A stretch of DNA of 64,000 nt from Arachis hypogaea. Taxonomy: Eukaryota; Streptophyta; Magnoliopsida; Fabales; Fabaceae. Both the position numbers and the translations under genes were made by a program. Below, piece after piece: positions 6,007 through 60,943 of the stretch. The notes under the pieces were generated by a model that had not been told where the DNA came from, made no database searches, and saw only the letters and a list, made by a program, of their open reading frames with translations. Each line of letters starts with the position of its first letter. Within the stretch, counting starts at the first letter, position 1. The stretch covers positions 89,934,745 through 89,998,744 of the forward strand of contig NC_092053.1 in NCBI RefSeq assembly GCF_003086295.3. The letters are read 5' to 3'.

Positions 6007-6136
6007 TGCAATGGTGCTTTATTATTGGCTATTGTGAATATTGTGAATATGCTTGCCTTTTTGGTTATTTGTTAATTTTTGTTAGCTTTAGAACTTTATC
6101 GCTTATTTTTGTTAGCTTTTGTTTCTATTTTCTATT

Positions 6137-7739
6137 ATAAATTCTCACCCTTTTGGCTATGAGTTTGGCTCAAATTATGTTGTAGGAAATGGAAGCTACA
6201 ATGATAACATGCATCAAGGATGGAACAATCAAAGGTGGAGGGAGCCTCAAAGAATTGATCACCCTTCTTGGCGACAACACCCTCTGGTTTCTTATAGGTA
6301 TAATTCCACCCCTCATGCATATCAATCCAATGGATGTGGTGACCCTTATTGTAGTTGTCAACAACCACCACCACATGCCTATGAACCACCCTCTCAACCT
6401 AATTTTGAACCACCTTACTCACAAGCCCTCTACCGCCAAACACCTCATTATGATCATAATCCTTATTCATCATATCAACCACCTTATAAGCCACATGAAC
6501 CATACATGGAACCACAAGAATTCCAACACAATTACTCTCAAGAACCACCTCAATACACACCACCCCCATACCCTTACCAAGATGAACTACCTTCCAATTA
6601 TGAATCCTTTCCCTCGAACAATGAACCCTCTTTTCGACCACTGCCTTTTGATGAAGCCCACACGCAAGAAATAAAAGATCTTGAATCTCATATCCTAAGG
6701 AAATAAGAGGAGACTGAAAAAGATTTTAAGGAAATAGAAACCAAAATGGCTATCATGGTAGAAGCCGTTGGTCGCCTAGCCTCCCACCTAAGCCCATGCA
6801 CCTCAAGTACTCCCATTGTTGAATATGGAGAAGCAATCAAGGAGCTTGGTGATGGAGTGAAATTGGAGCTCCAAGGTGAAGAAAAGGAGTTAAGGCAAGA
6901 AATACCACAAGAAGAAGAGGTAGAGTTTATTGAACAAAAGGAAGTAGTGGTCGGGTACTTAGGATATGTTGAGTGCATAGAGGAATCGCAAGTTGAAAAG
7001 CCTCCTTCCACGAAGTTAGGAAGGGATGTTAAGGAATTGGATGGAGAGTTGAGGGACATTGACCAAGAAGTGGATTCCATCATTAGTGATTTTTTGTCCA
7101 CGCTGATCAATCCCCTTGATGATCTTGTTGAACCTTCCTCCATTGGACTAGAAAGCAATGTTGAGGAGGATGTGCAACCTCCAAGGCCTGCTGTAAGTGA
7201 AGAATGGGAAGAAGCATTACAAGAAATAGGCCCTCCTATTTATGATGATTCCGTATCAACACATAAGCCCTTTGACCTTGATGAGTCCTTCCCCAATATG
7301 CTTGTAATTGATAATGAAGTAAACTTCACTAAACCTCCCATGTATGACGAGAGTGATGGGAAAGAGATAGAAGAAGTTGGTGAGCAAGGAATCGAAGTTG
7401 AAGAAGCTTGCAAAAAGGTGAAAGTTGCAAAGGAAGACCACAAGGGAACGGACCCTGCATTGGCTAAGTGTGGGGAGGTCACCCTCCCTAAACCACTATC
7501 ATCCAGTACTACTTTCAAGTGGGTTAAATTCCTCTCTATAAGCTTTACTTTCTCACTTGAATATGGGTTTCTTGAGAATGATGGTCAACTTAGAGCCCTT
7601 TGTGGAGTTACTAATAGGGGAGAGTTGTGTAGTGATTGGAGACATCATCCTAGGTTCACTATGGTTGCACGTTCAACGTTTGATAGCATGGATTGGGGTA
7701 GTGATAAATTGCCTGGGTCTAGGAGGATTGTTTGGTGCT
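6137..7739 (+). pseudogene. A1 ORF1, first part (unknown protein), split by B1
   Basis: This is the homologue of the intact A2 ORF1 at 49049-50857. The A2 start ATG is ATA here (6137-6139), so the start is lost. The N-terminal part is rich in Tyr, Pro, His and Gln (YAYEPP-, YQPP-type runs). A single in-frame TAA at 6704-6706 interrupts it. The same frame then continues (ATG 6746) through an acidic Glu/Val-rich region and the conserved LEYGFLENDGQLRALCG segment. B1 inserts at 7739/7740 after the codons for RRIVW, and the C-terminal tail resumes at 41174. I know no family for this protein and see no RT, protease or integrase motif. Confidence 0.85.
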
Positions 7740-9336
7740 TGATAAGCGGATATTTTATACGCTTTTTGGAGGTATTTTCATGTAGTTTTTAGTATGATTT
7801 AGCTATTTTTTAGTATATTTTTATTAGTTTTTAAATAAAAATCACATTTCTGGACTTTACTATGAGTTTGTGTGTTTTTCTATAATTTCAGGTATTTTCT
7901 GGCTGAAATTGAGGGACCTGAGCAAAAATCTGATTCAGAGGCTGAGAAAGGACTGCAGATGCTGTTGGATTCTGACCTCCCTGTACTCGAAATGAATTTT
8001 CAGGAGCTACAGAAGCCCAATTGGCGCGCTCTCAATTGCGTTGGAAAGTAGACATCTTGGGCTTTCCAGCAATATGTAATAGTCCATACTTTGCCCGAGT
8101 TTTGATAATGCAAACTGGCGTCTAAACGCCAACTTTCTACCCTTTTTTGGCAATAAACGCCAGAACTGGCATAAAAGTTGGAGTTAAACGCCCAAACTGG
8201 CACAAAAGCTGGAGTTCAATGCCAGGAATAGCCTATGCACGTGAAAGCTTCACTGCTCAGCCCAAACACACACCAAGTGGGTCCCGAAAGTGAATTTCTG
8301 CACTATCTATCTTAGCTTACTCATTTTCTAAAAACATATGTCACTAGTTTATTATAAAAACCACTTTTAGAGATTTATTTGGTACCTCATGACATTTTTA
8401 CATCTGAATTTTGTATCTTCTATGGCATGAGTCTCTAAACGCCATGGTTGGGGGTGAGGAGCTCTGCTGTGCCTTGATGGATTAATGCAATTACTACTGT
8501 TTTCCATTCAATCACGCTTGTTTCTATTCTAAGATATTCACTCGCACTTCAATATGATGAATGTGATGATCCGTGACACTCATCACCATTCTCAACCTAT
8601 GAACGCATGCCTGACAACCACTTCCGTTCTACCTTAGATTGAGTGTGTATCTCTTGGGTTCCTGGTTCACGAGTTTGATTGCATCTCTTGAAAACAGAGC
8701 ATTCAAATCCGTGAGACCAGAGTATTCGTGGTATAAGCTAGAATCAATTGGCAGTATTCTTGAGATCTGAAAAGTCTAAACCTTGTCTGTGGTATTCCGA
8801 GTAGGATATGGGAAGGGATGACTGTGACGAGCTTCAAACTCATGAATGTTGGGCGCAGTGACAGTGTGCAAAAGGATCAATGGATCTTATTCCAATACTA
8901 GTGAGAACTGACAGATGATTAGCCCTACGAAAATCGTAGCTGAACCATTTTCACTGAGAGGACGGATGGTAGCCATTGACAACGGTGATCCACCAACATA
9001 CAGCTTGCCATGGAAGGTGCCTTGCGTGCGTGAAGAAGAAGACAGTAGGAAAGCAGAGACTCAGAAGACAGAGCATCTCCAAAACCTCAACCTGTTCTCT
9101 ATTACTGCATAACAAGTATTATTTAATCCATGTTCTTTTACTCATTTCAATTAAAACTGAGAATTATTATTGATATCCTGACTAAGAGTTACAAGATAAC
9201 CATAGTTTGCTTCAAGCCGACAATCTCCGTGGGATCGACCCTTACTCACGTAAGGTATTACTTGGACGACCCAGTGCACTTGCTGGTCAGCTACACGGAG
9301 TTGTGTGAAAAGTCTGGATCACGATTCCGTGTACCA
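7740..9336 (+). repeat. B1 5' LTR
   Basis: About 1597 bp, from TGATAAGCGG (one change from TGATGAGCGG) to GTGTACCA, followed by the PBS. It contains palindrome words of the CTGGCGTCTAAACGCCA type (8110-8220). It also contains the interfamily LTR module GAGCTACAGAAGCCCAATTG...TTGGAAAG...CTTTCCA (8004-8088) and a TATA-like TTATTATAAAAACC near 8350. Confidence 0.95.
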
Positions 9337-13740: not shown

Positions 13741-15107
13741 TAGAACCAATAGTAGGGGCGTCCCTCCCTCCTACTGAGATCTTTGAGACCTTTCTGGATG
13801 AGAAACTCTTTGCCATTCAGGAAGTACCATGGTTTGCAGACATTGCAAACTATAAAGCTGTGAGATTCATACCCAAGGAGTACAGCAGACAGCAAACAAA
13901 AAAATTAATTTCTGATGCAAAGTACTACTTGTGGGATGAGCCATATCTATTTAAGAGAAGTGCAGACGGAGTAATCCGTAGATGTGTACCTAGAGAATAG
14001 GCGCATAAGATCCTATGGCACTGCCATGGATTACAACATGGAGGACATTTCGGAGGTGAGCGAATAGCCACTAAGGTCCTCAAATGTGGCTTCTACTGGC
14101 CTACTCTCTATAGAGATTCCTGAGAGTTTGTGCGTAACTGTGAGAGTTGCTAGAGAGCTGGTAACCTGCCTCATGGTTATGCCATGCCTCAACAAGGGAT
14201 ATTAGAGATTGAGTTATTTGATGTATGGGGTTATTGACTTCATGGGGCCTTTCCCACCATCATACTCAAACACTTACATTCTGGTGGCAGTAGACTATGT
14301 ATCTAAATTGGTAGAGGCAATTGCCACACCCACTAACGATACTAAGATAGTACTGAAGTTCCTCCAGAAGCATATCTTCAGCAGATTTGGTGTTCCTAGA
14401 ATACTAATTAGTGATGGAGGGACTCATTTCTGCAATAAACAGCTTGACTCTGCTCTGATTCGATATGAAATTAACCACAAAGTGGCAACTCTATATCATC
14501 CATAGACAAATGGGCAGGCTGAAGTCTCAAATAGAGAACTAAAACGAATCCTGAATGGACTGTAAGTACCCGTAGAAAGGATTGGGCAAGGAGTCTGGAT
14601 GATGATCTATGGGCATACAGAACTACATTCAAAACTCTTATAGGGACCTCTCCATACCAGCTTGTGTATGAAAAAGCCTGTCACCTGCCCGTGGAACTGG
14701 AACACAAGGCCTACTGGGCAACCAGATTCGTAAACCTTGATGCCAAATTAGCTGGAGAGAAAAGATTACTCCAGTTGAATGAGCTAGAGGAATTCAGACT
14801 CAATGCTTTCGAAAATGCAAAAATTTACAAGGAGAAAGCAAAAAGGTGGCATGACAAGAAATTGTCATACAGAGTCTTTGAGCCAGGTCAGAAGGTTCTG
14901 CTGTTTAACTCTAGGCTCAGATTATTCCCTGGGAAATTAAAATCCCGATGGAGGGGACCATATGTGATTACAAGTGTGTCACTATATGGATATGTAGAGC
15001 TTCAGGATATTGATTCTGACAAAAAGTTCATTGTTAATGGACAGAGAGTAAAGCATTATCTTGAAAGCAATGTTGAGCAAGAATGCTCGAAACTGAGACT
15101 AGATTAA
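13741..15107 (+). pseudogene. B1 integrase pseudogene
   Basis: In-frame stops fall at 13998-14000 (TAG) and two further points near 14119 and 14152, inside the His/Cys zinc-finger region (ILWHCHG to NCESC). A one-base insertion near 14231 shifts the frame before DFMGPFPP, the first catalytic Asp. The core continues with LISDGGTHF (second Asp) and [11 protein letters not shown] (Glu), interrupted by TAG at 14503-14505 and another frameshift near 14560. The last open piece (14664-15107) has [16 protein letters not shown] and the C-terminal domain FEPGQKV...[10 protein letters not shown]. The function would be insertion of the cDNA; this copy is dead. Confidence 0.95.
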
Positions 15108-15147
15108 AGCTCAGTAAAGTCCAGCTAAAGACAATAAAGAAGCGCTT

Positions 15148-15165
15148 GCTGGGAGACAACCCAGC
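15148..15165 (+). promoter_or_regulatory. B1 hairpin H1 after the pol stop
   Basis: Stem GCTGGG/CCCAGC with loop AGACAA, 40 nt after the TAA that ends at 15107. It is preceded by AAGCGCTT, which is itself self-complementary. It is one of six equivalent hairpins in the window, with different paired stems. No function is known to me. Confidence 0.75.
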
Positions 15166-15960
15166 CAGTAGCAAGGTTTATTTATTATTTAAATAATAAT
15201 TATAGGAGTTTAATATAAATTATCTTTAAGGATATTTGTCCAAATGCAGAAGTTTACAGAGTTACAGAAGGATTCAGAGCACAAAGCAGAGAAAAATGGC
15301 TCACTGGTTCGAAAATGCCAGTAAGAGGTATTTTGGGCGTTAAACGCCAGAATGGGTACCATTCTGGGCGTTTAACGCCAGTAAAGATACCTTTTTGGGC
15401 ATTAAACGCTAGAGTTGCAGCATCCTGGGCGTTTAGAAAAACGCTCAGTGATAAAGGATTTCTGGCGTTTAACGCCAGCCAGGGTACCTGGTTGGGCGTT
15501 AAACGCCCAAAATGGCCAACACATGGGCGTTTAACTCCAGAAAAGACAGGGGGAGGTGATTTTGTTTCCACTTCAAATTTTTTCAAACTTTCATGTTTTA
15601 ATTCATAATTTTCTGCATAAACATGTTACAAATTTTCATCACTCACATTCAATTTTCAAAAATTCAATAATCTTCTAAATCCCTTTTCAATTTTCTTTCA
15701 AATCCTTTCCAAATCTTTTTAAAAACTCATTTATCTTCTCAATTCCTTTCCAAATCTCTTCCAACTCATCATATCTTCTTCTAATCCTTAGATGCATCAA
15801 CAAATTTTCAAATTTAACTTCTTTATATCTTTTTCATATTGTTTGAATTTTAAAATCTCATCTTTTTCATATCATGATTCATTTTTTTACCAATCATATC
15901 TTTCTATCATATCTTTTTCAAAATTTTCGAAACCTCACCCTCCACTATTAAATACATGTT
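15166..15960 (+). repeat. B1 palindrome spacer and T-rich leader before ORF2
   Basis: From about 15332 to 15545 there are six or more copies of GGGCGTTTAACGCCAG-type words in both orientations, separated by short unique pieces. A T/C-rich stretch without ORFs follows, up to the C1 insertion at 15960/15961. Confidence 0.85.
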
Positions 15961-18292
15961 TGATGCGCATAAACTAGTTATGCTACGATTTAGGAAATTG
16001 CACGATCGGCAAAATTCCTTCCGGCAAGTGCACCGGTTATCGTCAAGTAAAAACTCACAATAGAGTGAGGTCGAATCCCACAAGGATTGGTTGAGTGAGC
16101 AATTCGGATTAGAAGTGTGTTCTAGTTGAGCGGAATCAAGATTTAGATGAGAATTGCGGAATGTAAAATTGGCGGGAAAAGTAAATGACAAGAAATTGAA
16201 ATGGCGGAATCTTAAATTGCATGAATTAAAGAGCAGAAGCTAAATTGCTGAAATTAAAAGGGAATGGGGGTGATTGCATGAATTGAGTTGCAGAATGTAA
16301 AGAGAAAGTGGAAATCAGAAATGGGGAATTCATTGGGTGTTAGGAGATATTGAGATCTCCGAATCAAAACATGTTTATCTCTTCCTCAACCAATGCGTTC
16401 ATTGAATTTTGCTTGGCAATCTTATATGATTGGATCCCAATCCCTTGGCTCACCAATTCTCTCTAAAAACAAACAAATTCCCAATCCCTTGGTTTAAATG
16501 TTCATAAGAAGAGATGATGCTCGATCACTGATTATACCACACAGTTTCATGAACCACAATTTGGTAGGATTACATGTCACAATATCCATCCAAACCCCAA
16601 TCCAATTCACTGTGAGAAAGCTTCTCTAGCATGAATCCTCCATTCCTTTCCCAAGGTTCCGAAGGATTCCAATTATGGGTAGTTTCTTTCCCAAGACAAC
16701 TACCCAATGGAATTAGATCGAGAAGCTTTCTAACAAAATTCAAGAGAAAAGATTGAAGAAGAAGATAAACTATTATTGATTCATTGAATTACAATAGAGC
16801 TCCCTAACCAAATGAAAGGGGTTTAGTGAGTCATAGCTCTGAATTCAACTACAAAGATATAAAAACTAGCTAAATGAAAAGGTAAAAGTTCCAGTGCCCT
16901 CTCTAACTTAAATTCTATCCTATTTATACACTTTCTATATTGAGCTTCTGTTGTGTTTCTTGGGCTTTGAGGCTTCTCCCTACTTTCCTTTTGCCTTGGG
17001 TTTATGATCCATAATCTTGATGAGGCTGTTGATCCAAATTCTGTAACATTCATTGAGCCAACTTAGTGATAATCAAATAATGACACATGACTCAATAAAT
17101 TGAAATTTCAGACTCATCAATCCTTCAGGCCCAATCCCATAAACCATGATATTCAATTGGGTTTCATACCAGAGTAAGTTTAAGTTAATGTTTGTGCTCA
17201 AATACTAACTTAAACCGCAATATTTTTGGCCCAGAAACCTTTTCCAAGAGTGGCGTTTAAGTTGCAGTTTAAGCTTAAACTGCAGCTTAAACGCCAGACA
17301 CTTCCAGTGATGCCTTTTGTGGAAGCACGTTTAAGCTTCAGTTTAAGGTTAAACTGAAGCTTAAACGTGGAAATGGAAGAAGGCAGCCCTGGAGGGTAAT
17401 ATAGTCGAACACGTTTAAGCTTCAGTTTAAGGTTAAACTGAAGCTTAAACGTGGAAATAGAAAAGGCAGCCCTGGAGGTCGAACACGTTTAAGCTCCAGT
17501 TTAAGGTTAAACTGGAGCTTAAACGTGGAAATGGAAGAAGGCATCCTGGAGGTCGAACACGTTTAAGCTCCAGTTTAAGGTTAAACTGGAGCTTAAACGT
17601 GGAAGCTTAGAAGGTAGCCCTGGAGGTGTCGAACACGTTTAAGCTCCAGTTTAAGGTTAAACTGGAGCTTAAACGTGGAAATGGAGAAAGCAACCCTGGA
17701 GGAGAAACTTGGTCGAACACGTTTAAGCTCCAGTTTAAGGTCAAACTGGAGCTTAAACGTGGAAATGGCTCCCTGGTGCCTTTCCCCTTTCTGGCGTTTA
17801 ACCTCCAGTTTAAGGTTAAACTGGAGGTTAAACGTGGAACTGCCCTCCTTGGTGTCCTTCTCACTTCTGGCGTTTAACCTCCAGTTTAAGGTTAAACTGG
17901 AGGTTAAACTTCAATTCCAGCATTTCTTAGCCTTCCTGATTCTGGCGTTTAAGCTCCAGTTTAGGCTTAAACTGGAACTTAAACTCCACATGTGATATTC
18001 AAGCTTCCTTTATTGATTTTGTTGCTTCCTTGCTTAGCCTCTTCTTCCCTGAAATCATCCAAACAATTGCATCAAAGTCTTGCAAAATTTCATGAGAAAT
18101 CTTCCATTCATAGCATTCAAGTAATATAACTAAAACTCATGGAATTTGCATTAAAATCATACTGTTTGGATGGTTCATTGCTTTGTTATTCATTTAACCA
18201 TTCTTGGTTACTTTAAGCTCAAGAAAATGCATAAAACAACTAAAACTAACAGAAAAATGCTAGTGAAACTAGCCTAAGATGCCTTGGCATCA
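15961..18292 (-). repeat. C1 3' LTR
   Basis: On the plus strand it begins TGATGCGCATAAAC and ends GGCATCA, as TG...CA. The right part is U3 and holds ten long palindromes (17251-17984). A TATA box, TATAAATA on the minus strand, lies at 16921-16928. It differs from the 5' LTR at the few places I could find, for example G/A near 16327 and A/G in CCTACTTTCC near 16980. Confidence 0.95.
17251..17984 (-). repeat. Array of ten long palindromes in U3 of the C1 3' LTR
   Basis: Inverted repeats of 38-46 bp lie at 17251-17296, 17326-17369, 17410-17453, 17484-17527, 17558-17601, 17634-17677, 17718-17761, 17795-17834, 17872-17909 and 17947-17984. Most are perfect, with two central bases (GG) and arms of 18-21 bp. 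The arm sequence varies between copies: CTTCAG in two, CTCCAG in four, CCTCCAG in two. The opposite arm changes to match. The spacers (GGCAGCCCTGGAGGTCGAA type) are also repeated. In the element RNA this forms the 3' untranslated tail. Confidence 0.95.
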
Positions 18293-18330
18293 CAACACCA
18301 AACTTAATACTTGCTTGTCCCTAAGCAAGT
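18293..18330 (-). promoter_or_regulatory. C1 PPT with upstream hairpin H2
   Basis: On the minus strand the order is stem ACTTGCTT, loop AGGGAC, stem AAGCAAGT (18330-18309), then AAGTTTGGTGTTG (18305-18293) directly against the LTR. The PPT word equals that of B1 and B2 although the LTRs are unrelated. The stem differs from theirs but is fully paired. Confidence 0.8.
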
Positions 18331-19380: not shown

Positions 19381-20889
19381 TTAATTCTTGGGATCCTGCT
19401 TCTTCTTGCTTCCTGCCTCTTTTTGACTACTTGTGCTTCCTTTGTCTTTTCTTATGAGCTTTTTCCAGAATCCAGCCTTTTTCATTGTTTCTTCCACTCC
19501 TTTTTCAAGGATCATTGCCTTGTTTATTTCTCCTTCTTTCCTCCCTTTGAAATACTCATCAAAAGCTGGGAATGCTGGGTCCATCTTGTGTAGATGTTCC
19601 CCTATGTAGTTAAGCTTGATTTGCGAACTGATGTTGTAATCAGCTTGGACTGAGTATCTTGCATTCTGTAAAGTGGTGGCTTCCTTGATTGCCAAGACAT
19701 TGGCATCTTGGTGTTGGCATATGTGGCTGAAGGATTCCTGTAAATGTAAATTCTGTTCCCTTTGCAGATCCAAGAATCTTGATTCAAAGTTCCTTTGCAT
19801 ATCCATCATTTTTAGGTGAAAGTCCTCTTGTCTCTCCTGAGACCTCATGTATTGTTGAGACATTCCTTCCATGATTTCCTGCATTCTGCTCATATCCATG
19901 GGGTCTCTAGGAGTTCGTTGTCTTCTTTCTGGAATTGCTTGCTCTTCTTGCTCTTCTTCTCTATCTTCTCCTTCCTGTCCTTCTTGTTCAGCTTCTTGCT
20001 CTTCTTCCGCTTGTTGCCCTTCTTCATTTCTTCTTTTTGTATGTCTTGGAGGAGTTGGGCCAAGAGTCATTCTGTACGCAGTTATGGCCAATCCAGGATA
20101 TAGCCAATTAGGTCTTTCATCTTCAAGTGGTACTTGGGCATCGATGCATAGTCTAATGATGGTGCTAGGGAAGTGGAGCCAGGATTCAGGGTCACTTTTC
20201 TCACTAAACTCTTGTATCTGTTCAGCAATGAGTTTATGAACTTTGATTTCCCCTCCCACCATAATGCAATGTAGCAAGATGGCTCTTTTAGGGACTATTT
20301 CTGAAGAGTTTGCAGTGGGTAGGATGGATCTCCTAACTATTGCATACCACCCTTTAGCTTCCGGTGTTAGGTCTCCCCTTCTCAAAACTCTTGGAGCCCC
20401 TCTTGTTTTTCTCACCCATTCAGCTCTGATGGCACAAAGGTCTTCAGCAATAGTTGTATAGTCAGGTTCTCCTATCATCCTTTCCTCATAACTTGCTTGG
20501 CTGAAATGTATGTTTTTCAGGCCAAGAGTTTTCATGATTGCCTTGGGGCTGAAGTCAACTTCCACCCCTCTCACATAGCTTTTGTATGTGGGTTTCTTGG
20601 TTGAGTCTTCCCTCACTGCATTTGCATAGAACTCCTTCACCAAGTTGATGTTGATTTTAGTGATTGGCTTAGTCAGGAGCTCCCACTTCCTCTTTTTGAT
20701 CTTCTCCCAAACACCTGGGAACTCATCCTTTTCAAGGTCAAAGGGAACCTCAGCTAGTACCCTTTTTGGTCTCATCCATTCGGCTTGAATCTCATGGAAA
20801 ACTGATTTGTATCTCCTTGCATCGAATTCCCTGCTCTCCTCCATTGGTTGCTTGTCTTTTCTTCTTTTGTGGCTAGATGAGGCTGCCAT
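19381..20889 (-). CDS. C1 ORF2: putative plant transposon protein (env position)
   Basis: An intact 502-codon ORF starts with MAASSSHKRRKDKQP. It has a basic N-terminus, a globular region (residues ~20-260) with VKEFYANAV, YVRGVEVDFSP, EAKGWYAIVRRSILP and RAILLHCIMVG, then a Glu/Gln-rich acidic stretch (~285-335), a Met/Gln-rich coiled-coil segment, and a basic Lys-rich tail. The same layout occurs in the B1, B2, B3 and A1 ORF2 copies. It matches what databases call a putative plant transposon protein, found where Athila elements carry their second ORF. The biochemical function is unknown. I see no convincing signal peptide or membrane segment, so it does not look like a true envelope protein. 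Confidence 0.85.
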   Translation of the reverse strand: MAASSSHKRRKDKQPMEESREFDARRYKSVFHEIQAEWMRPKRVLAEVPFDLEKDEFPGVWEKIKKRKWELLTKPITKININLVKEFYANAVREDSTKKPTYKSYVRGVEVDFSPKAIMKTLGLKNIHFSQASYEERMIGEPDYTTIAEDLCAIRAEWVRKTRGAPRVLRRGDLTPEAKGWYAIVRRSILPTANSSEIVPKRAILLHCIMVGGEIKVHKLIAEQIQEFSEKSDPESWLHFPSTIIRLCIDAQVPLEDERPNWLYPGLAITAYRMTLGPTPPRHTKRRNEEGQQAEEEQEAEQEGQEGEDREEEQEEQAIPERRQRTPRDPMDMSRMQEIMEGMSQQYMRSQERQEDFHLKMMDMQRNFESRFLDLQREQNLHLQESFSHICQHQDANVLAIKEATTLQNARYSVQADYNISSQIKLNYIGEHLHKMDPAFPAFDEYFKGRKEGEINKAMILEKGVEETMKKAGFWKKLIRKDKGSTSSQKEAGSKKKQDPKN

Positions 20890-21974
20890 TGGTTCTTTGG
20901 TTTTGGTAAGTTACAAGCTAAAGTTGACAAGGTGAAACAAGAAGTGTTGTTGGAAATGTGGTGAGGTTGTTTTCGGCAAGAGATAGTTATGCTATGATGA
21001 AGGAAAATGTGCATGAAGGAGAATTGGTGGTGTGGAACTCGTTCCCCAAGTGGTTCTTTATAGTGCCCATAAGTGAAAAATGGACGGCTAGGGTGGTTTG
21101 TGAAGGGTGGCTTGATGGTAAATATATGAATTAGGGAGAAGGACGAATTGCTTTTCATTTTCTTGGAAGTATTCTGGGTGCATTAAGTTGTACATGTAGC
21201 TATCTTTTCTTGCAGAACTTCCTTTTCCCATGTGTTAGTTTCAAAGACTTGTGAACTTTTCTTTTTGACCAAGCACCGTACCTCCCTTTGTCTTTTTCCT
21301 CCATTTTTGTCTTTTCTTTTGTACCTGCACAAACAAACAAGTTTGCTATCATTTTTCGGTCCATGTGAATGATGAATAGTACTTGCACATGTAAATCAAT
21401 GATTGACTTCATGAGCTTATAGCCGTGACTTTTGTATGTATGTACACTTATTATTGGACACCAAACTTAGTGTTTGGTAAAGTCTCCTGATGACATGAAA
21501 TCCATATTGGTTGTCCTTAATGAATGTGCATAATTCTAATAAATCATAGTCACTTTGGCTCTTTGATTCTAAACAAATTTACTACCCTAAGTAATTGAAA
21601 CCAAAAACATGCGAATGGTCTACTTGTCATGAATTTCGAAATCCAGAGGAACTTCTTGCTTTTCATGAACCGTGTTCACGGAGGAACACCAAACTTAATG
21701 TTTGGTTGTGCTCTTTGCATGAAAAATTGAATGCATTTTGAATAAAGTTTGGGGTGCCTTCAGGCACACCAAACTTAGAGACAAATTGTATTTTATATGC
21801 AATGTTTAGTGCACTCTTTCAGCAGTTGTCCTGAGGATTCAAGTTCATGCATAAGAAACCATGCTTTATTAGATGCAAAACAAAACAAAACAAAAAAGAG
21901 TAAGGATATTAAAAACATGGGTTGCCTCCCATGAAGCGCTTCTTTAACGTCACTAGCTTGACGGTTGTCCCTTG
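20890..21974 (-). other. C1 spacer between gag-protease and ORF2
   Basis: There is no credible ORF. On the minus strand it carries hairpin H1 near its start and three copies of AAGTTTGGTGT (plus coordinates 21458-21468, 21686-21696, 21766-21776). Two of these are followed by a matching half, so they read as CCAAACTTA...TGTTTGG. Confidence 0.75.
21916..21933 (-). promoter_or_regulatory. C1 hairpin H1 after the gag-protease stop
   Basis: On the minus strand: stem CATGGG/CCCATG with loop AGGCAA, 41 nt after the stop codon at 21975. AAGCGCTT precedes it. A second small hairpin, GTCAAGCTAGTGAC, lies just upstream. Confidence 0.75.
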
Positions 21975-24623
21975 TTAGGGTGGATTGTAGTGCTTGACGT
22001 TTTCTCCTCTCACTATGCAAACGTCCCCACTTGATTCCTTCATGACCTCTAAATGTTCCATAGAAAGAACTTTCCTGATTGTGAATACTTGAGGGAGCTG
22101 GGAAGGAATGGTTTTGAGGTCAGGTGGGATTGGCAGATAATGACTTGATATCACTTTATCTCCCGGAGAGAAACCTTCAGTGGGAATTTTCTTGTTTCTC
22201 CACCCTCTTGGCAATTTCTTTACAATGCTTCCCTTTCTCTTGAAGCTTTCTTCATTGACCCTTATGCCGGGAGGATCCTTCTGATCTGTTTCTATTGATT
22301 CTTGTGGCTTTAACTCTTGCAATTCTTGTTTGCTTTCCAAGGACTGTTTCAGAGTTTCAGCTGCCGGATTGCTTTCCTCCAGATACAGATGGCTACTCTC
22401 ATCCTTAGGCTTTTCATGTTCTGGTTCAGGCTCAGATGCAGGTTTGAAAACATTGAAAATGAGCTGTTCATCATGTATTCTCAAAATTAGCTCTCCTTGT
22501 TCTACATCTATGAGTGCTCTAGCAGTGGCTAGAAATGGCCTTCCCAGAATGATAGGGTGTAGGTAGCTTTCCTCCATGTCCAAAATGACAAAGTCTGTGG
22601 GGAAGTAATAATCTCCCACTTTCACCAGCACATTCTCAACTACCCCTTCAGCTTGCTTCTGAGTTTTGTCAGCCAGTTGTATGATTACATCAGTGGATCT
22701 CACCTCATTCAGTTGTAGCCTCTTCATAAGAGTTAGAGGCATCACATTTATGCTAGCTCCTAGATCACAGAATCCTCTGTCAATTTTTGTTTCTCCTATG
22801 ATGCAAGGAATATGAAAGCTTCCTGGGTCTGTTTTCTTAGAGACTGTGTCCTTCTTGATGAGGGCACTGCATTCTTTGTTCATTGTTACCGTTTGTCCTC
22901 CCTTCAAAACTCTTTTCTTGCTCAACAATTCCTTTAAATACGTGATGTGTGTAGGCATTTGATGGAGAATCTCAAGAAAGGGAATATTGATATGGAGAGA
23001 CTTAAATGTCTCTAAAAACCTTGAATAGGTTTTCCCTTTTTCACCTCCTCCTAACCTCTGAGGAAATGGTGCTTTTGGTTGGTATGTTTCCATCGTGCCT
23101 TTTTGCAGTTCCTTGGCTTGCTCAGTTTCACTTTCCTGCTTAGCTTCCTCCACACCTTCCTTCAAGATTTCTGGCTCCTGTTCTGAGGGCCTGATTCCTT
23201 CTTCTTCTGAGACTTCCTTCAATATGGTGATGGCCTTGCATTCTTCCCATCTCACTCTCTTTTGTTCCCCTTTAGGATTCTTTTCTGTGTCACTAGGGAA
23301 CACTGCAGTTGATTTGGGGGCCTGTTGAGATAGCTCTCCTACTTGAGACTCCATCCTCTTGAGTTTTTCACCATGGTTTCTTAAGGTAGCTCTCACATCA
23401 TCCCTGAAGCTTTTCAATTCGGTTATGTCTTGACTCATGGTTGCCATCATTCCTTCTATCCGGTTTAATTGATCTTGAAATTGTTGGTTCGGATTAGGTT
23501 GGGTAGGTTGATTATTTTGGCCATGATATGATGGTTGGGAGTAAGTGTTTTGTGTGGCTTGGTATGATCTTTGGTTGGAGTTTTGGTATGTGGAATTGTT
23601 ATGTTGGTTGTGGTTGTAAGGTTTGTGGTTTTGTGGTTGGGTTTGTTGGTTCCCCCACCCAAAGTTTGGGTGATTTTTCCATCCTGGGTTGTAAGTGTTG
23701 GAATGTGGATCATATGATTGCCTTTGTTGGTTTCCCACATAGTTGGCCTCTTCCCAATCACCTCCTTCAATGCTTACTTCCTCTTGATCTTGTGTGTGTA
23801 TTGCAGCCACTTGCTTTGTTTCTAATTGCCTGGTAAGCTCTGCTAGTTGCTTGGCAAACACCTTGTTTTGGGCTAGAATTGTATCAACATGGTTCAGCTC
23901 CATGACTCCCTTAGTGTTGTGCCTCTCTGATGCATAGTAGTACTCATTCTCAGCCACTGTCTCAATCACTTCAATGGCTTCTTCCACAGTCTTTTTCCTG
24001 TTCAATGAACCTCCTGATGAATGGTCTACAGCCTTCCTTGATTCATAAGAGAGTCCATCATAGAAAATATGCAATTGCACCCAATCATGGAACATGTCTG
24101 GTGGGCATTTCCTTGTCAAATCCTTGAATCTCTCCCATGCCTCGTAGAGAGTTTCACCATCTTGTTGTCTAAAAGTCTGAACCTCAGATCGAAGCCTATT
24201 GACCTTTTGTGGGGGGTAGAAACGTGCCAAAAACTTGCTTTCCACCTCATCCCATGTTGTTAGACTCCCCCTTGGGAATGATTCCAGCCACTTAGCTGCT
24301 TTGTCCCTAAGTGAAAATGGGAACAAAAGCAGTTTATAGGCATCTTCCTGGACTCCATTGGACTTCACAGTGTCACAAATTCTCAGAAATTTTGTGAGAT
24401 GTTGGTTGGGATCTTCATTAGCACTCCCACCAAATGAACAATGATTCTCCACAAGTGATATTAGCTGTGGTTTGAGTTCAAAATTGTTGGCCTGAATGGG
24501 TGGTTTCTGAATGCTGCTACCACAATTCCCAGAGGTTGGGTTTATGTATGAACTAAGAACCCTCCTCTCAGGAATGGCATTGTTTCCATCAGCTCTCTCA
24601 TGGTTGTGAACTTCTCTATCCAT
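21975..24623 (-). CDS. C1 gag-protease fused to an integrase C-terminal domain
   Basis: An intact 882-codon ORF starts with MDREVHNHERADG. The gag core lies at about residues 55-235 (FLRICDTVKSNG, FLARFYPPQKVNRL, YEAWERFKDLTRKCPPDM). A Gln/Asn-rich linker with YNPGWKNHPNFGWG and a helical stretch follow. The aspartic protease (~595-735) has FCDLGASINVMP, FPTDFVILDM and ILGRPFLATARALIDV. The last ~70 residues, FSPGDKV to IVRGENVKHY, align with the integrase tail of B1 (FEPGQKV to [10 protein letters not shown]). The RT, RNase H and integrase core appear to have been removed, leaving this tail in frame. The lack of stops fits recent mobility in trans. Confidence 0.93.
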   Translation of the reverse strand: MDREVHNHERADGNNAIPERRVLSSYINPTSGNCGSSIQKPPIQANNFELKPQLISLVENHCSFGGSANEDPNQHLTKFLRICDTVKSNGVQEDAYKLLLFPFSLRDKAAKWLESFPRGSLTTWDEVESKFLARFYPPQKVNRLRSEVQTFRQQDGETLYEAWERFKDLTRKCPPDMFHDWVQLHIFYDGLSYESRKAVDHSSGGSLNRKKTVEEAIEVIETVAENEYYYASERHNTKGVMELNHVDTILAQNKVFAKQLAELTRQLETKQVAAIHTQDQEEVSIEGGDWEEANYVGNQQRQSYDPHSNTYNPGWKNHPNFGWGNQQTQPQNHKPYNHNQHNNSTYQNSNQRSYQATQNTYSQPSYHGQNNQPTQPNPNQQFQDQLNRIEGMMATMSQDITELKSFRDDVRATLRNHGEKLKRMESQVGELSQQAPKSTAVFPSDTEKNPKGEQKRVRWEECKAITILKEVSEEEGIRPSEQEPEILKEGVEEAKQESETEQAKELQKGTMETYQPKAPFPQRLGGGEKGKTYSRFLETFKSLHINIPFLEILHQMPTHITYLKELLSKKRVLKGGQTVTMNKECSALIKKDTVSKKTDPGSFHIPCIIGETKIDRGFCDLGASINVMPLTLMKRLQLNEVRSTDVIIQLADKTQKQAEGVVENVLVKVGDYYFPTDFVILDMEESYLHPIILGRPFLATARALIDVEQGELILRIHDEQLIFNVFKPASEPEPEHEKPKDESSHLYLEESNPAAETLKQSLESKQELQELKPQESIETDQKDPPGIRVNEESFKRKGSIVKKLPRGWRNKKIPTEGFSPGDKVISSHYLPIPPDLKTIPSQLPQVFTIRKVLSMEHLEVMKESSGDVCIVRGENVKHYNPP

Positions 24624-25066
24624 ATTGAGATCTAAAGCTCCTCAAAATTGTCCTCAGATTCTCCTTCAGATTCCTCTTCTCCCAGTACTCTCTTCCCTCT
24701 TGCTTCCCTTCTCAGTCTATGAAGGGTCCTCTCTGGTTCGGTATATGGAGGAGTTGATGTCTCTCCTCTCCTACTTGTCATACAAGAACACAGCACAGGC
24801 AACAAACAAGTGAAATACTCTTGGTTAATGGAAGAGTATGGTTAGAGCAATTGAGGAATTAATTCAAACAGTTAGTGAGTCAGTGAGTTAGTTGCTTGAA
24901 TTTAAAGGCATAAAGAAAGAAAGCATGTAACAGAGTGCAGAAATTGAAATTCAACAAGTAACATGTACTGAATTAATCAAAACAAAAAAAAAATGCTCAA
25001 TCTAGTTAACTTCCAATTTGAGAATTGTCAATCGAAAACCAATCCCCGGCAACGGCGCCATAAACT
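24624..25066 (-). other. C1 5' leader
   Basis: This is an untranslated leader of about 440 bp between PBS and gag, A-rich on the plus strand. Apart from the PBS at its right end I see no motif. Confidence 0.7.
25043..25060 (-). promoter_or_regulatory. C1 primer-binding site (tRNA-Asp)
   Basis: On the minus strand it reads TGGCGCCGTTGCCGGGGA, a perfect match, six bases inside the 5' LTR boundary at 25067. It fixes the orientation of the element. Confidence 0.95.
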
Positions 25067-32320: not shown

Positions 32321-32451
32321 GGTATGATTTTTCTTCTGCTGTTTTTGATTCCGTTTTCAATTTTTATATTTATTTTGTGACTCCACATGATCATGAACCT
32401 AATAAAACATAAAATAACAATAAAAATAAATTAAAATTAGATAAATAAAAA

Positions 32452-32467
32452 TTGGGTTGCCTCCCAA
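32452..32467 (-). promoter_or_regulatory. B2 hairpin H1 after the protease stop
   Basis: On the minus strand: stem TTGGG/CCCAA with loop AGGCAA, 49 nt after the stop at 32517. It is preceded by AAGCGCTT and by the small hairpin GTCAAGCTATTGAC. Confidence 0.75.
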
Positions 32468-32516
32468 CAAGCGCTTCTTTAATGTCAATAGCTTGACAGT
32501 GGGCTCTCATGGAGCC

Positions 32517-41168: not shown

Positions 41169-41173
41169 GTGCT

Positions 41174-41409: not shown

Positions 41410-41458
41410 CAAGGAACCTCCCAAATGTCCAACTTAAGGACTTAAACTAAAAGTGCTT

Positions 41459-41476
41459 GGTGGGAGACACTACACC
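41459..41476 (+). promoter_or_regulatory. A1 hairpin H1 (degenerate)
   Basis: GGTGGG, loop AGACAC, TACACC, 49 nt after the ORF1 stop. Two of six pairs are weakened compared with the A2 version (CCCACC). It is preceded by AAAGTGCTT. Confidence 0.6.
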
Positions 41477-48941: not shown

Positions 48942-49048
48942 TTTGCAATGGTGTTGTGTTATTGGTTATTGTACATATGTGAATATTGTGAATAGGTTTA
49001 TCTTTTGTTGTTTCTTAATTTTTGTTAGTTTTATTTTGTTCTCTCATT

Positions 49049-50857
49049 ATGAATTCTCACCACTCTGGCTTTGAGTTTGGTTCTAAGTGTGTTGTAGGAA
49101 ATGTGGACTTTAATGGCAACATGTACCATGGATGGAACCAACAAAGATGGGAAGAGCCTCAAGGAATTGATCACTCTTATTGGCAACAAACTCCGGATAC
49201 TTATAGGTATAATTTCCATCCTAATGCATGCCAACTTAGCGGCTATGATGATTCTTTTTGTGACACTCAACCACCACCATATGCCTATGAATCTTATCCT
49301 CAACATGATGCTCAACCATACTCACAAGCCCATTTCTACCAAGTACCTTTATGTGACCCTTATCCATCATATAACCAATCACCTATACCACACCCTTGTG
49401 ATCATTATGAGCAAGAACCTTTAGAACCACCACAACCCTATCAAGATTACTACCAAGAACCACCTCAATACTCATCATCTCCATACCTTTACCAAGAAGA
49501 ACCACCTTCCTACCATGAACCCTCCCTCCAAAATAATGAACCTTCCTATTCACCCCAAGCCCCAATAGACGATCCTCTCACTTTGTTACTCCAAGGACAA
49601 GAAGCCATGAAGCGGGATACACTTGAGTTTGTGACCAATTTGACCAAGGTGGTGCACATTTTAGCCCACCAATGCTTGAATACTCAAGATACTTCCGTGA
49701 CCACATGTGAAAAGTCAAAAGAAGAGCAAAGTATGAAGGTGAAATTGGAAAATTCGGTGGAGAAAGAGGAGTCAAATTTTGTATTGGAGCAACTAGAGGA
49801 ACCTATAATCATTGAAGAAAAGGAAGAAGTGGTTGAAGATTTAGGAGATGTTGAAAGTCGAAGGGAATGTAGTCTCATGGAGCACTCTTCCAAGGAGCTT
49901 GATATTGAAGTTGAAGAAGGTGCGCAACCCCCAAGGCATATCATCGTTGGAGACTTAGAAGAGGCTTATCAAGAGATGGATTCAATCATGGATGAATTTT
50001 TCTCTACAATGGAATCGTCTCCCATTGGACATGGAGTTGAAAGTATAAAAGAGTGTGCACAACCTCCCATACCCTTGGTGAGCAATGAGAAAGAGAGCTA
50101 CCAAGAGGAAAACGTTGGCATGGTGTATATCAAAATTGAAGAATATGAAGAGGTTGACCAAGCAATGGATTTATTCATCAATGAATTTCTATCCAAAATT
50201 GAACCACCTCCCATTAGGCAAGAAATCAAAGTTCTTGAAGACAACACCAAGCTATGTGATAAAAGGGGAAAAGTTGAAATCAAGGAAGCTCGCAAAGAGG
50301 TGGAAATACACAAAGAAGAGCACAAGGAAGTAGACCTTGCATTGTCTAAGTGTGGGAAGGTCTCCCTTCCCAAGTTACCATCCAATACAACATTTAATTG
50401 GGTAAAATCTCTATCTCTAAGCTTTATTTTCCCACTTGAATATGGTTTGATTGAAAATAATGGACAACTTAGAGCTCTTTGTGGACTTAAAGGAAAAAGA
50501 GAATTGTGTAGTGGTTGCAAGTTAGGAATTAGGCTCATTAAGGTCAAGGTTTCAAGGTATAGGAACGATGATTGGAAGAATGCCACATTGCATGGGTCTC
50601 AACGGAAGGCTAGGTGTGCTAAAGAGAATTCTATATGTCAACCACCCGGAAAGAAAAAGTATGAAGATCAAATTGAAGACGGGTGCGAAGATAAGATATG
50701 GGACCCCGGCTCGCTGAATGAAGACCAACTATGGGGACTCATATCTTGGGTTGAACTTTGCCCAAGCTTGGTGAAGACGGTTGGATATTCTGTCAACCAA
50801 TTGAGAGGCAAAGATCCTTGGAGATTCAAGGATGAGTACAAACATAAGCCACCATGA
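49049..50857 (+). CDS. A2 ORF1: intact 602-residue protein of unknown function
   Basis: ATG 49049 (MNSHHSGFEFGSK) is chosen because the open frame before it has only a TTG. Residues ~1-190 are rich in Tyr, Pro, Gln and His (PPPYAYESYP, YYQEPPQYSSSPY). Residues ~190-420 are acidic, Glu-rich and helical, with a repeated pattern EVDQAMDLFINEFLSKIEPPP / EMDSIMDEFFSTMESSP. Then comes a conserved C-terminal part with FPLEYGLIENNGQLRALCG, CSGC and the end WRFKDEYKHKPP. It takes the place of gag-pol yet shows no gag core, CCHC knuckle, protease or RT motif. The A1 copy has the same regions, so the protein is a family property. A structural, Gag-like role is a guess from position. Confidence 0.85.
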   Translation: MNSHHSGFEFGSKCVVGNVDFNGNMYHGWNQQRWEEPQGIDHSYWQQTPDTYRYNFHPNACQLSGYDDSFCDTQPPPYAYESYPQHDAQPYSQAHFYQVPLCDPYPSYNQSPIPHPCDHYEQEPLEPPQPYQDYYQEPPQYSSSPYLYQEEPPSYHEPSLQNNEPSYSPQAPIDDPLTLLLQGQEAMKRDTLEFVTNLTKVVHILAHQCLNTQDTSVTTCEKSKEEQSMKVKLENSVEKEESNFVLEQLEEPIIIEEKEEVVEDLGDVESRRECSLMEHSSKELDIEVEEGAQPPRHIIVGDLEEAYQEMDSIMDEFFSTMESSPIGHGVESIKECAQPPIPLVSNEKESYQEENVGMVYIKIEEYEEVDQAMDLFINEFLSKIEPPPIRQEIKVLEDNTKLCDKRGKVEIKEARKEVEIHKEEHKEVDLALSKCGKVSLPKLPSNTTFNWVKSLSLSFIFPLEYGLIENNGQLRALCGLKGKRELCSGCKLGIRLIKVKVSRYRNDDWKNATLHGSQRKARCAKENSICQPPGKKKYEDQIEDGCEDKIWDPGSLNEDQLWGLISWVELCPSLVKTVGYSVNQLRGKDPWRFKDEYKHKPP

Positions 50858-50907
50858 CAATGAGCCCCTCAAAATGTCCAACTTAAGGACTTAAACTAAA
50901 AGTGCTA

Positions 50908-50925
50908 GGTGGGAGACACCCCACC
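50908..50925 (+). promoter_or_regulatory. A2 hairpin H1 after the ORF1 stop
   Basis: Stem GGTGGG/CCCACC with loop AGACAC, 50 nt after the stop that ends at 50857. Six perfect pairs. It is preceded by AAAGTGCTA. It is the family-A counterpart of the B and C hairpins. Confidence 0.75.
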
Positions 50926-52138
50926 ATGGTAACCTTTTTCCATTCTCTTTTGGTTTTGTATAATAAGTGATTTGAGTTGCCATTGTAGGTAGATTTTCAT
51001 TTCATATTGATTTGTTTGTAAAGATTGGTTGTTAGTATGTTGTATTCATTAGTAGTAGATGAATAAATCCTAAAATCAAATTGCATTTTTGTGAATTGTT
51101 TGATATTTTATTGAATAAAGAAGAGTTTTGGACATTATAGGGAGCTCTTGGGCATTTTTTCTGCTTTTTGGGAAAAAAAAAAAAAGGGCCATCGGCGCGC
51201 TAGCACGCTGTGCGCGCACGCGCACATTGCACTTCCGCAACTTCTGGTACAAAAACCAGAGAGTTGTGCGCGCGTCGTGCCAGCATTGTGCTTGGAGCAC
51301 AAGCTCATCCATGTGTAAGCGCGCTGTGCGCGCGCGCGCGGATCGTCCCAGCTGCATCCACGCGTGAGCGCGCTGTGCGCGCGCGCGCGGATTTGCACCC
51401 TGCTTTTCTCCTTCCTCCTTTCTCCTTCTTTCCTCTTCTCTTCTTCTTTCTTTCTCATATTTTTTTCTTCTTCCTCTCTTGAAAGATTTTTTTTCTTTTC
51501 TCTTTTAATGTAAATAAAAAAAAATTAATAATAAAAAAATATATATATATAATAATAAATAAATAAATAAATAAATAAAATACTAAAAAAAAAATTAAAA
51601 ATAAAAAAATTGTCTATTACATTTGCATACTTTTATTCTTTGCATTTTAATTCTATTTGTTCTCATTTTCTTTTCTAAATTTCTCATTTTAATAATGGTG
51701 TTGAATTCTCTCACTCAACTGTTGAGAATTTCTTGCATTTGTTTTTGTGCTTCATGACTTGTTACATTAATTGTAATATTTGTCAACACACAAGATTAGT
51801 GCTTTAGTCCTTCCTAATTCATTACCCTTTGTTTTTTTCTTGTACCGCTTTATCATTGAGTTAGGATAGAATCAAATGCTTTCATGCGTATCACTAATCT
51901 TGTTTGTGTCAATTCTTATTTGATCTTGATGCTCAATATACTCGCCATGCTTTAACTTTACTCTTGCATCACGTATCAGTTGATATGCCTTTTGCTTATA
52001 TTGATTTCTCACTCACATGTTGTAGCTACCATGTAATAGAGAATCATACTCTTATTTGGCATTAGCCCCCGCCTATGTTCTATTTACTTTGATATCTTTT
52101 TTGTAGGCTTAATTTTCTTTCTTTTTCTCTCCTTTTAG
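50926..52138 (+). other. A2 spacer with CpG palindromes and microsatellite
   Basis: From about 51190 to 51395 it is extremely CpG-rich: GCGCGCTGTGCGCGCGCGCG occurs twice, in each case after a CGCG/AGCG context. A (TA)n then (AATA)n microsatellite lies at about 51538-51580. The rest, to 52138, is A/T-rich without a credible ORF. ORFs over the CpG part overlap in opposite frames and are artefacts of composition. Confidence 0.75.
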
Positions 52139-60760: not shown

Positions 60761-60888
60761 CCAGGGTGTGCCATTTTCAATGCTGTTTTTGATTTTAGCT
60801 TTTGTTTTTGTGACTCCACATGATCATCATCCTAAAGAAAACATAAAATAACAATGGAAAATAGAAATTTAACATATTTAAGTAAAAA

Positions 60889-60904
60889 TTGGGTTGCCTC
60901 CCAA
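60889..60904 (-). promoter_or_regulatory. B3 hairpin H1 after the protease stop
   Basis: On the minus strand: stem TTGGG/CCCAA with loop AGGCAA, 39 nt after the stop at 60944. It is preceded by AAGCACTT, one change from AAGCGCTT. Confidence 0.75.
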
Positions 60905-60943
60905 CAAGTGCTTCTTTAATGTCAATAGCTTGATAGTGGGCTC

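What the first reader, a model, noticed from the sequence alone, without database searches (positions are those of the whole stretch)
15148..15165. Covarying hairpin H1 at a fixed distance after the ORF1 stop in six elements of three families
At 15148, 21916(-), 32452(-), 41459, 50908 and 60889(-) there is a stem-loop 39-50 nt after the stop of the first ORF. Stems are GCTGGG/CCCAGC, CATGGG/CCCATG, TTGGG/CCCAA (twice) and GGTGGG/CCCACC (with a degenerate A1 copy). The loop stays AGACAA, AGGCAA or AGACAC. The outer pairs change on both sides together, the mark of selection on RNA pairing. It is found behind pol (B1), behind gag-protease (C1, B2, B3) and behind an unrelated ORF1 (A1, A2). A self-complementary AAGCGCTT precedes it in the B and C copies (one base changed in B3). 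Possible roles: packaging or dimerisation, re-initiation for ORF2, or RNA stability. I know no description of it.
Basis: partly seen in the sequence, partly recalled or inferred. Interest (0 to 1): 0.88.

Follow-up and report, generated by a model that had tools for sequence, protein, structure and literature searches.

The report
Conserved RNA hairpins after ORF1 stop
Six jumping genes stacked in one stretch of peanut-like DNA each carry the same small RNA structure just after the stop signal of their first gene, even where that gene was replaced, so the structure itself is probably needed for the element's RNA to survive or be copied.

Summary
The hairpin (HP1) is real at all six places. It is part of a larger unit: ORF1 stop, 8-18 nt, a weaker hairpin HP0 (GTC...GAC), a 15-17 nt linker ending in AAGYGCTT or a variant, HP1 (6 bp, loop AGRCAM), then a T-rich stretch. 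A covariance model built from the six copies finds them (56-72 bits) and nothing else above 7.3 bits in the window. HP1 position 2 uses all four Watson-Crick pairs in four lineages; HP0 lacks covariation support. Module mismatches within families are 5/104 against 196/1112 in flanks. The elements look like Athila-type retrotransposons, probably of Arachis. C1 ORF1 keeps an integrase tail, so 'behind gag-protease' there is the old end of gag-pol; C1 and A1 share the stop context, so descent explains part of the fixed distance. ORF2 initiation is unlikely: A2 has the module and no ORF2. I favour a stop-proximal RNA-stability signal (escape from nonsense-mediated decay), with packaging/dimerisation a close rival; neither is shown. 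No Rfam family reaches its cut-off, and my paper searches listed no description. Plant genomes could not be searched, so the spread is open.

The parts
15148..15165 (+). HP1 of B1, GCTGGG-AGACAA-CCCAGC, 40 nt after stop TAA 15105-15107
15119..15132 (+). HP0 of B1, GTC...GAC, only 3 bp
15140..15147 (+). octamer AAGCGCTT of B1
15105..15107 (+). stop codon of the B1 integrase-end frame (pol itself is broken upstream)
21916..21933 (-). HP1 of C1, CATGGG-AGGCAA-CCCATG, 41 nt after stop 21975-21977
21948..21963 (-). HP0 of C1, CGTCA...TGACG, 5 bp
21975..24623 (-). C1 ORF1, 882 aa: gag, protease, then an integrase C-terminal tail
19381..20889 (-). C1 ORF2, PF20167 (Transposase_32, putative plant transposon protein)
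32451..32468 (-). HP1 of B2, GTTGGG-AGGCAA-CCCAAT (outer pair G.U), 38 nt after stop 32507-32509 (homologous to B3's stop; B2's protease frame is shifted)
32483..32498 (-). HP0 of B2, TGTCAA...TTGACA, 6 bp
60888..60905 (-). HP1 of B3, same stem as B2, 38 nt after stop 60944-60946
60920..60935 (-). HP0 of B3, one pair broken (A-C)
41459..41476 (+). HP1 of A1, decayed (GGTGGG/TACACC), 49 nt after stop 41407-41409
41427..41441 (+). HP0 of A1, GTCC...GGAC (not in the predicted fold of A1)
50908..50925 (+). HP1 of A2, GGTGGG-AGACAC-CCCACC, 50 nt after stop 50855-50857
50876..50890 (+). HP0 of A2, GTCC...GGAC, 4 bp
49022..50857 (+). A2 ORF1, 611 aa, no Pfam match; homologues named in Arachis
50926..50965 (+). 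T-rich stretch directly after HP1 (A2, T 0.53; 0.70 in C1, 0.72 in B2, 0.57 in B3, 0.42 in B1, 0.40 in A1)

Best explanation
The unit (stop, HP0, AAGYGCTT linker, HP1, T-rich stretch) is a cis-acting structured RNA signal at the 3' end of ORF1 of Athila-type LTR retrotransposons, inherited by the pol-bearing element B1 and by the elements without pol (C1, B2, B3, A1, A2). Shown here: its presence, boundaries, conservation above flanks, HP1 pairing and position after the stop. Inferred: its most likely job is linked to termination. The full-length RNA has 2.3-3.7 kb between the ORF1 stop and the 3' LTR in the four elements where this can be measured, which should expose it to nonsense-mediated decay; the unit, as protein-binding RNA structure plus adjacent U-rich RNA close behind the terminating ribosome, would keep UPF1-type decay factors off, as the Rous sarcoma virus stability element and the turnip crinkle virus 3'UTR start do.
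For: Each of the six elements that I could place and that still includes the ORF1 end carries one copy, and the model finds no other in the window (the six are its training rows). It follows three kinds of ORF1 end: integrase (B1, C1), protease run-on (B2, B3), unrelated ORF (A1, A2). In both close pairs the stop position is kept while the codon is TAA in one and TGA in the other (B2 frame caveat as above). Of 26 A-ORF1 homologues found, 11 contain KHKPP, and 10 of these end exactly there; the eleventh (P0022) reads on and its protein spells the module at a 49-nt spacing, if no intron intervenes. Module mismatches are 5/104 against 196/1112 in flanks (gapped columns left out), Fisher one-sided p 1.6e-4. 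A2 keeps the module without gag, pol or ORF2. T content is 0.40-0.72 in the first 40 nt after HP1. 3' spans follow from coordinates. Papers: PMC2925335 and PMC6277124 (passages), PMC5580461 (abstract).
Against: No RNA data; decay was not tested. The RSV element is larger (minimal 155 nt), and a compensatory change that should re-form its stem 3 did not restore function (PMC2925335 passages). In turnip crinkle virus a stable hairpin abolished protection, and protection survived conversion of 19 pyrimidines to purines (PMC6277124 passages), so neither a hairpin nor a U-rich tract is protective by itself. C1 and A1 share the stop context (17/20; 4 of 1,500 random comparisons reach this; C1 with A2 only 14/20, reached by 62 of 1,500), so the fixed distance may be inherited and not functional. 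T content in B1 and A1 is only at the 84th and 79th percentile. HP0 lacks covariation support (7 of 24 permutations and 11,027 of 50,000 shuffles reach it). The modules fold only 0.5-2.6 sd below shuffles. In B2 a 178-nt context fold loses HP1, a 368-nt one keeps it.
Confidence: 0.4

Rival explanations
1. Genomic RNA packaging or dimerisation signal: HP1/HP0 bind Gag of a helper element and the palindrome AAGYGCTT pairs two RNAs. Non-autonomous elements keep it to be packaged by a helper.
For: Retained in gag-less A2 with the other cis signals: a shared PBS core GCCGTTGCCGGGGATT in the five elements read (B1, C1, B2, A1, A2), and a hairpin plus PPT-like tract before the 3' LTR in the four read (B1, C1, B2, A2). 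The octamer is self-complementary in B1, C1, B2 and, with two G.U pairs, in A1 (sequence).
Against: The octamer is broken in the centre in B3 and at the ends in A2. Its mean unpaired probability is only 0.12-0.68 over six copies and two contexts. A packaging signal has no need to sit behind the ORF1 stop. No packaging data.
Confidence: 0.28
2. Expression signal for ORF2 (re-initiation, internal entry, or a splice acceptor region for a subgenomic RNA).
For: A PF20167 ORF2 lies downstream in C1 and B3; B1 and B2 hold stretches similar to it. A T-rich tract then AG lies 28, 52 and 56 nt after HP1 in A1, B2, B3 (97.5th-99.3rd percentile of a crude score).
Against: A2 has the module but no forward stop-to-stop frame above 92 codons before the 3' LTR. 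C1 ORF2 starts 1,027 nt after HP1; the 1,318 nt scanned from the HP1 start hold 34 ATGs, some of which may lie inside ORF2. The best splice-like sites within 400 nt in B1, C1, A2 are at the 76th, 93rd and 90th percentile.
Confidence: 0.12
3. Premature 3'-end processing: the module and T-rich tract make a short ORF1-only mRNA.
For: T-rich stretch after HP1; AATAAA stands in the B1 linker and 45 nt after HP1 in C1.
Against: AATAAA is not at a constant place and is absent from the 80 nt after HP1 in B3, A1 and A2 (sequence).
Confidence: 0.1
4. DNA-level or cDNA-level role (protein site on double-stranded DNA, or hairpin in minus-strand cDNA for plus-strand synthesis).
For: The elements hold several hairpins next to PPT-like tracts, and in B2 and B3 a PPT-like string lies about 75-85 nt upstream of HP1.
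Against: Downstream, the nearest PPT-like string is about 140 nt from HP1 (C1). Arms change together through all four pair types, which a double-stranded DNA site does not need.
Confidence: 0.06
5. No present function: a passively inherited remnant.
For: Only four lineages; B2/B3 and A1/A2 are close relatives; C1 and A1 share the stop context.
Against: Conservation between families stops at the module, while flank windows are at 0.06-0.56 identity; the within-family mismatch rate is about a quarter of that in flanks.
Confidence: 0.04

Closest known systems
[quoted passage not shown]
   Same: RNA with stem-loops directly behind the gag stop of a long-terminal-repeat retroelement with a long 3' span (PMC2925335 passages; PMC5580461 abstract)
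   Different: RSE is 155-400 nt, in an avian retrovirus, and its function was tested; here about 50 nt plus a T-rich tract, after the end of gag-pol or ORF1, untested; no sequence comparison with RSE was made
Turnip crinkle virus 51-nt unstructured 3'UTR start
   Same: Plant host assay; pyrimidine-rich RNA just behind a stop that gives NMD resistance (PMC6277124 passages)
   Different: Unstructured, and a stable hairpin abolished it; here hairpins come first and the T-rich tract after
Packaging and dimerisation signals of retroviruses and BARE-type elements (recalled)
   Same: Stem-loops with a self-complementary stretch, kept by non-autonomous elements
   Different: Those known to me lie in the 5' leader or early gag
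Athila/Calypso/Diaspora elements
   Same: PBS for tRNA-Asp; relatives of Diaspora carry extra sequence after pol (PMC1142308 passages)
   Different: The words hairpin, stem-loop and secondary structure do not occur in the main text of PMC1142308; the sequences of these elements were not compared

Membership tests
Athila clade of Ty3/gypsy (OTA superclade) | gag, protease, RT-RNase H of Ty3/gypsy type | tested here: met
   For B1: Retrotrans_gag, Asp_protease_2, RVT_1, RT_RNaseH. C1 gag and protease; B2 and B3 gag and protease by similarity (B3 protease 17.7 bits, below its cut-off 24.3). No second RT in the window by tblastn. No Pfam match in A2 ORF1 or two A1 ORFs
Athila clade of Ty3/gypsy (OTA superclade) | tRNA-Asp PBS as in Diaspora/Calypso | tested here: met
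   TGGCGCCGTTGCCGGGGATT in B1, C1, B2, A2 (TGGTGCC... in A1) near the end of the 5' LTR; that this matches tRNA-Asp is recalled; the B3 5' end was not read
Athila clade of Ty3/gypsy (OTA superclade) | placement by polymerase tree; no additional RNase H (Tat has it) | not tested
   no tree built; criterion from PMC6317226 passages
RSV-type RNA stability element | lies directly behind the ORF1/gag stop | tested here: met
   HP1 38-50 nt after stop in 6 of 6 (B2 frame caveat)
RSV-type RNA stability element | protects RNA with long 3' span from NMD | not testable with these tools
   needs RNA assay
RSV-type RNA stability element | sequence homology to RSE | not tested
   no RSE sequence was fetched
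Packaging/dimerisation signal | self-complementary stretch kept by all copies | tested here: inconclusive
   kept in B1, C1, B2, A1 (with G.U); broken in B3, shortened in A2
Packaging/dimerisation signal | needed in cis for RNA in particles | not testable with these tools
   needs experiment
Any Rfam 15 family | reaches gathering score | tested here: not met
   window scan: only snoR71, elsewhere. Relaxed scans of the C1 and A2 modules alone: best 9.7 bits (cut-off 80) and 16.6 bits (cut-off 50)

The most novel reading that the evidence does not exclude
A lineage-wide, stop-proximal two-hairpin RNA element of plant Athila-type retrotransposons that survives even the replacement of the whole gag-pol by an unrelated ORF, and that shields the genomic RNA from nonsense-mediated decay (or marks it for packaging); parasitic non-autonomous families would be defined by keeping this signal together with PBS and PPT.
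Probability: 0.35. Interest if true: 0.75.

Novelty: new variant of a known kind. Interest (0 to 1): 0.52.

Why it matters
LTR retrotransposons fill much of large plant genomes. How their full-length RNA escapes plant RNA quality control, and what a non-autonomous copy must keep to go on moving, are open to my knowledge. A roughly 50-nt element kept through loss of pol and through replacement of the coding region gives a short, directly testable candidate, and a search model (R1, six copies) to trace it in other plants.

Tried and rejected
Chance: rejected. In 91 of the 131 fetched loci (80 viral contigs with TGGGAGGCAACCCA and 11 prokaryote contigs with a longer HP1 pattern) the model's best score is 21.1 bits (E 0.011), against 56.2-72.2 for the six window copies, which are the model's own training rows.

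Conserved peptide instead of RNA: rejected from sequence. The frame KEAL-x-GRQP across HP1 changes at first and second codon positions in step with the opposite arm, and the A copies change further residues (read).

Spread outside the window: pattern scan of viral contigs 0; of genome contigs 11 prokaryote hits (about 30 expected by my rough estimate), best model score 19.3 bits. One search used a pattern with a spacing error that would not match the window's own copies, so its zero means nothing. RT and gag searches of viral contigs found no relative. The composite peptide search gave 155 candidates, none at E 10 or less. The C1-frame search gave one protein of 2 candidates, P0027, which spells the C1 module.

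Loop-linker pseudoknot (HP0 loop GCT/ACT with linker AGC/AGT): possible, one paired change only; not pursued. Terminator-like reading of hairpin plus T run: not pursued.

One search stopped with an error after the HP1 table, and the cross-family part failed (end gaps unpenalised); both were redone and are not used.

Literature: nine paper searches (one search was about NMD), judged on the listings; the listings of 52, 53, 66 and 83 were capped (20 of 24, 20 of 30, 25 of 1,761, 10 of 335). No listed title or abstract start describes the hairpin; one search looked for its letters and found four unrelated papers. Subscription papers are mostly not held, so 'not described' is limited to these searches. 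I recall similar strings in grass and other legume repeats; that is recall only and was not tested.

Full report
WHAT IS THERE. The window is a stack of nested LTR retrotransposons. From self-comparison I place: B1, LTRs 7730-9334 and 39563-41166 (95%), with C1 (minus; LTRs 15960-18292 and 25066-27398, 99.8%) and B2 (minus; LTRs 28565-30195 and 36739-38378, 96%) inside it; A2, LTRs 47338-48920 and 53840-55422 (99%); A1, an older A element from about 4374, whose ORF1 is split by B1 (tblastn of A2 ORF1: 6116-7738 and 41170-41406); B3 (minus), reaching to near the window end, without a recognisable 3' LTR. A seventh element (gag at about 2298-4376, plus strand) is cut before its ORF1 end, so it could not show the module. 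The A2 ORF1 has 26 database homologues, 22 of them named as Arachis and 4 unnamed, so the host is probably Arachis; this is inference.

THE OBSERVATION. All six hairpins exist where stated. A search for the core with up to one mismatch gives 5 sites against 0.58 expected, with 0 of 100 shuffles reaching 5. A covariance model built from the six copies finds those six at 56.2-72.2 bits and nothing else above 7.3 bits in 64 kb. On the control of 91 contigs, of 131 held, that carry part of HP1, the best score is 21.1 bits.

A LARGER UNIT. Aligning the copies shows that HP1 is the 3' half of a module. After the stop come 8-18 nt; then HP0, with arms GTC and GAC extended to CGTCA/TGACG in C1, TGTCAA/TTGACA in B2 and GTCC/GGAC in A; then 15 nt (B, C) or 17 nt (A) ending in AAGYGCTT or a variant; then HP1. 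The predicted fold is HP0 plus HP1 in B1, C1, B2 and A2; B3 folds HP1 only and A1 neither. Stability is not exceptional: 4 to 56 of 200 shuffles fold at least as well. In longer contexts HP1 stays the main fold in B1, C1, B3 and A2, is lost in B2 at 100+60 nt but returns at 200+150 nt, and is lost in A1. The first 40 nt behind HP1 are T-rich in C1, B2, B3, A2 (0.53-0.72; 95th-99.9th percentile), less so in B1 (0.42, 84th) and A1 (0.40, 79th).

CONSERVATION AND COVARIATION. Ungapped identity anchored at HP1, in 18-nt windows: among B1, C1 and B2 it is 0.72-0.94 over HP1 and the 18 nt before it and 0.50-0.78 in the next 18 nt; with A2 it is 0.67-0.83 over HP1 and 0.00-0.50 in the two windows before, where A is 2-3 nt longer; flank windows between families lie at 0.06-0.56. 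Within families, module mismatches are 2/52 (B2/B3) and 3/52 (A1/A2) against 77/549 and 119/563 in flanks, gapped columns left out; Fisher p 0.033 and 0.006, pooled one-sided 1.6e-4. HP1 position 2 is CG, AT, TA and GC in B1, C1, B2/B3 and A; position 1 is GC, CG, GU and GC. With one copy per lineage all 24 cells pair; of 24 permutations of the 3' arms only the observed one does so, and 520 of 50,000 column shuffles do. With all six, paired cells 96.3% and covariation score 0.348 are reached by 0 of 500 shuffles and exceed all slid controls; the number of pair types is reached by 8 of 500 and the count of pairs with two-sided change by 55 of 500. HP0 fails the test: 7 of 24 permutations, 11,027 of 50,000 shuffles. 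So HP1 pairing is supported, with few independent lineages; HP0 is a conserved sequence with likely but unproven pairing.

WHERE IT SITS. The stops lie 40, 41, 38, 38, 49 and 50 nt before HP1 in B1, C1, B2, B3, A1, A2, as TAA, TAA, TGA, TAA, TAA, TGA. B2's stop is the one homologous to B3's; B2's own protease frame is shifted and stops about 10 nt earlier. B1's frame there is the integrase C-terminus. C1 ORF1 (gag, protease) ends in a tail that aligns to it (25/86 identities, E 2e-8), so C1 is a gag-pol ORF with an internal loss, and 'behind pol' and 'behind gag-protease' are one place. B2/B3 end shortly after protease. The A ORF1 is unrelated (no Pfam match; no alignment with the C1 tail). 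Yet C1 and A1 share 17 of 20 letters around the stop, which 4 of 1,500 random comparisons of the window reach; C1 with A2 share 14 of 20 (62 of 1,500 reach 14). Hence A elements may have arisen by replacing what lay upstream of the gag-pol stop, and the shared distance is at least partly descent. Of 26 A-ORF1 homologues, 11 contain KHKPP and 10 of these end there; the eleventh, P0022 (named Arachis hypogaea), runs on through QEAHQMSNLRTLTKSAGWETTHYG, which spells the same module at a 49-nt spacing if no intron intervenes. P0027, from an unnamed 739-base contig, spells the C1 version.

HOW IT PROBABLY WORKS. A2 keeps the module with no gag, pol or ORF2; forward stop-to-stop frames between HP1 and its 3' LTR are at most 92 codons. 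In C1, ORF2 (PF20167) starts 1,027 nt after HP1, and 34 ATGs lie in the 1,318 nt scanned from the HP1 start, some perhaps inside ORF2. This speaks against a role in starting ORF2 and for a role in the RNA itself. The span from stop to 3' LTR, from coordinates, is about 3.2 kb in B1 without its inserts, 3.7 kb in C1, 2.3 kb in B2 and 3.0 kb in A2. Such spans are expected to attract nonsense-mediated decay (general knowledge). The RSV stability element behind the gag stop and the start of the turnip crinkle virus 3'UTR counter this (passages of PMC2925335 and PMC6277124; abstract of PMC5580461). I therefore put stop-linked RNA stability first, at 0.4, and packaging/dimerisation second, at 0.28. 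Against the first: in turnip crinkle virus a stable hairpin abolished protection and pyrimidines were dispensable; re-forming an RSE stem did not restore RSE function; and descent may explain the distance. For the second: retention together with the PBS core (B1, C1, B2, A1, A2) and a hairpin-PPT unit before the 3' LTR (B1, C1, B2, A2), and a self-complementary octamer, though B3 and A2 spoil it.

KNOWN OR NEW. No Rfam family reaches its cut-off on the module (the relaxed scans covered C1 and A2 only). Nine paper searches listed no description (four listings capped). The words hairpin and stem-loop do not occur in the main texts of three papers on plant LTR elements (PMC1142308, PMC7264820, PMC6317226), of which I saw passages only. 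The PBS and coding content fit Athila; no tree was built. Plant genomes could not be searched: the own-genome search did not complete in 17 tries. The spread beyond these elements and two database proteins (P0022, P0027) is therefore unknown.

Noticed in passing
39536-39555 (+), 18309-18330 (-), 30214-30233 (-), 53801-53822 (+): A second hairpin (8-9 bp, loop AGGA, GGGA or AGGGAC) stands directly before the PPT-like tract at the 3' LTR of B1, C1, B2 and A2; stem letters differ in step between A2 and the others (8 of the 15 distinct sites of that scan are followed by the tract, the other 7 look like chance).
   Followed up: partly
27468-27487 (+), 60085-60104 (-), 46940-46957 (+), 52262-52279 (+): Internal copies of the same hairpin plus PPT-like tract in B1, B3, A1, A2, resembling a central polypurine tract; in B1 and B3 about 65-75 nt before the ORF2 match.
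   Followed up: partly
window-wide, e.g. 9462, 9540, 9661, 36198(-), 32618(-), 21767(-): PPT-like strings AAGT[TG]TGG[GT]G occur 25 times, 24 of them on the strand of the element they lie in (leader, end of ORF1, after HP1, before LTR).
   Followed up: partly
24094-24197, 34198-34305, 62584-62691: Rfam snoR71 (RF00097) reaches its cut-off three times, antisense to the gag region of C1, B2 and B3; the family may include retrotransposon sequence.
   Followed up: no
50926-50970 and 41477-41521: In both A copies an ATG follows HP1 at once and opens a 14-codon frame.
   Followed up: no
56189-57874: A B-type LTR flanked on both sides by A-type sequence, apparently a solo LTR inserted in A1.
   Followed up: partly
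17254-17985 and 26360-27091: Self-similar, overlapping repeats inside both C1 LTRs, seen in the self-comparison.
   Followed up: no
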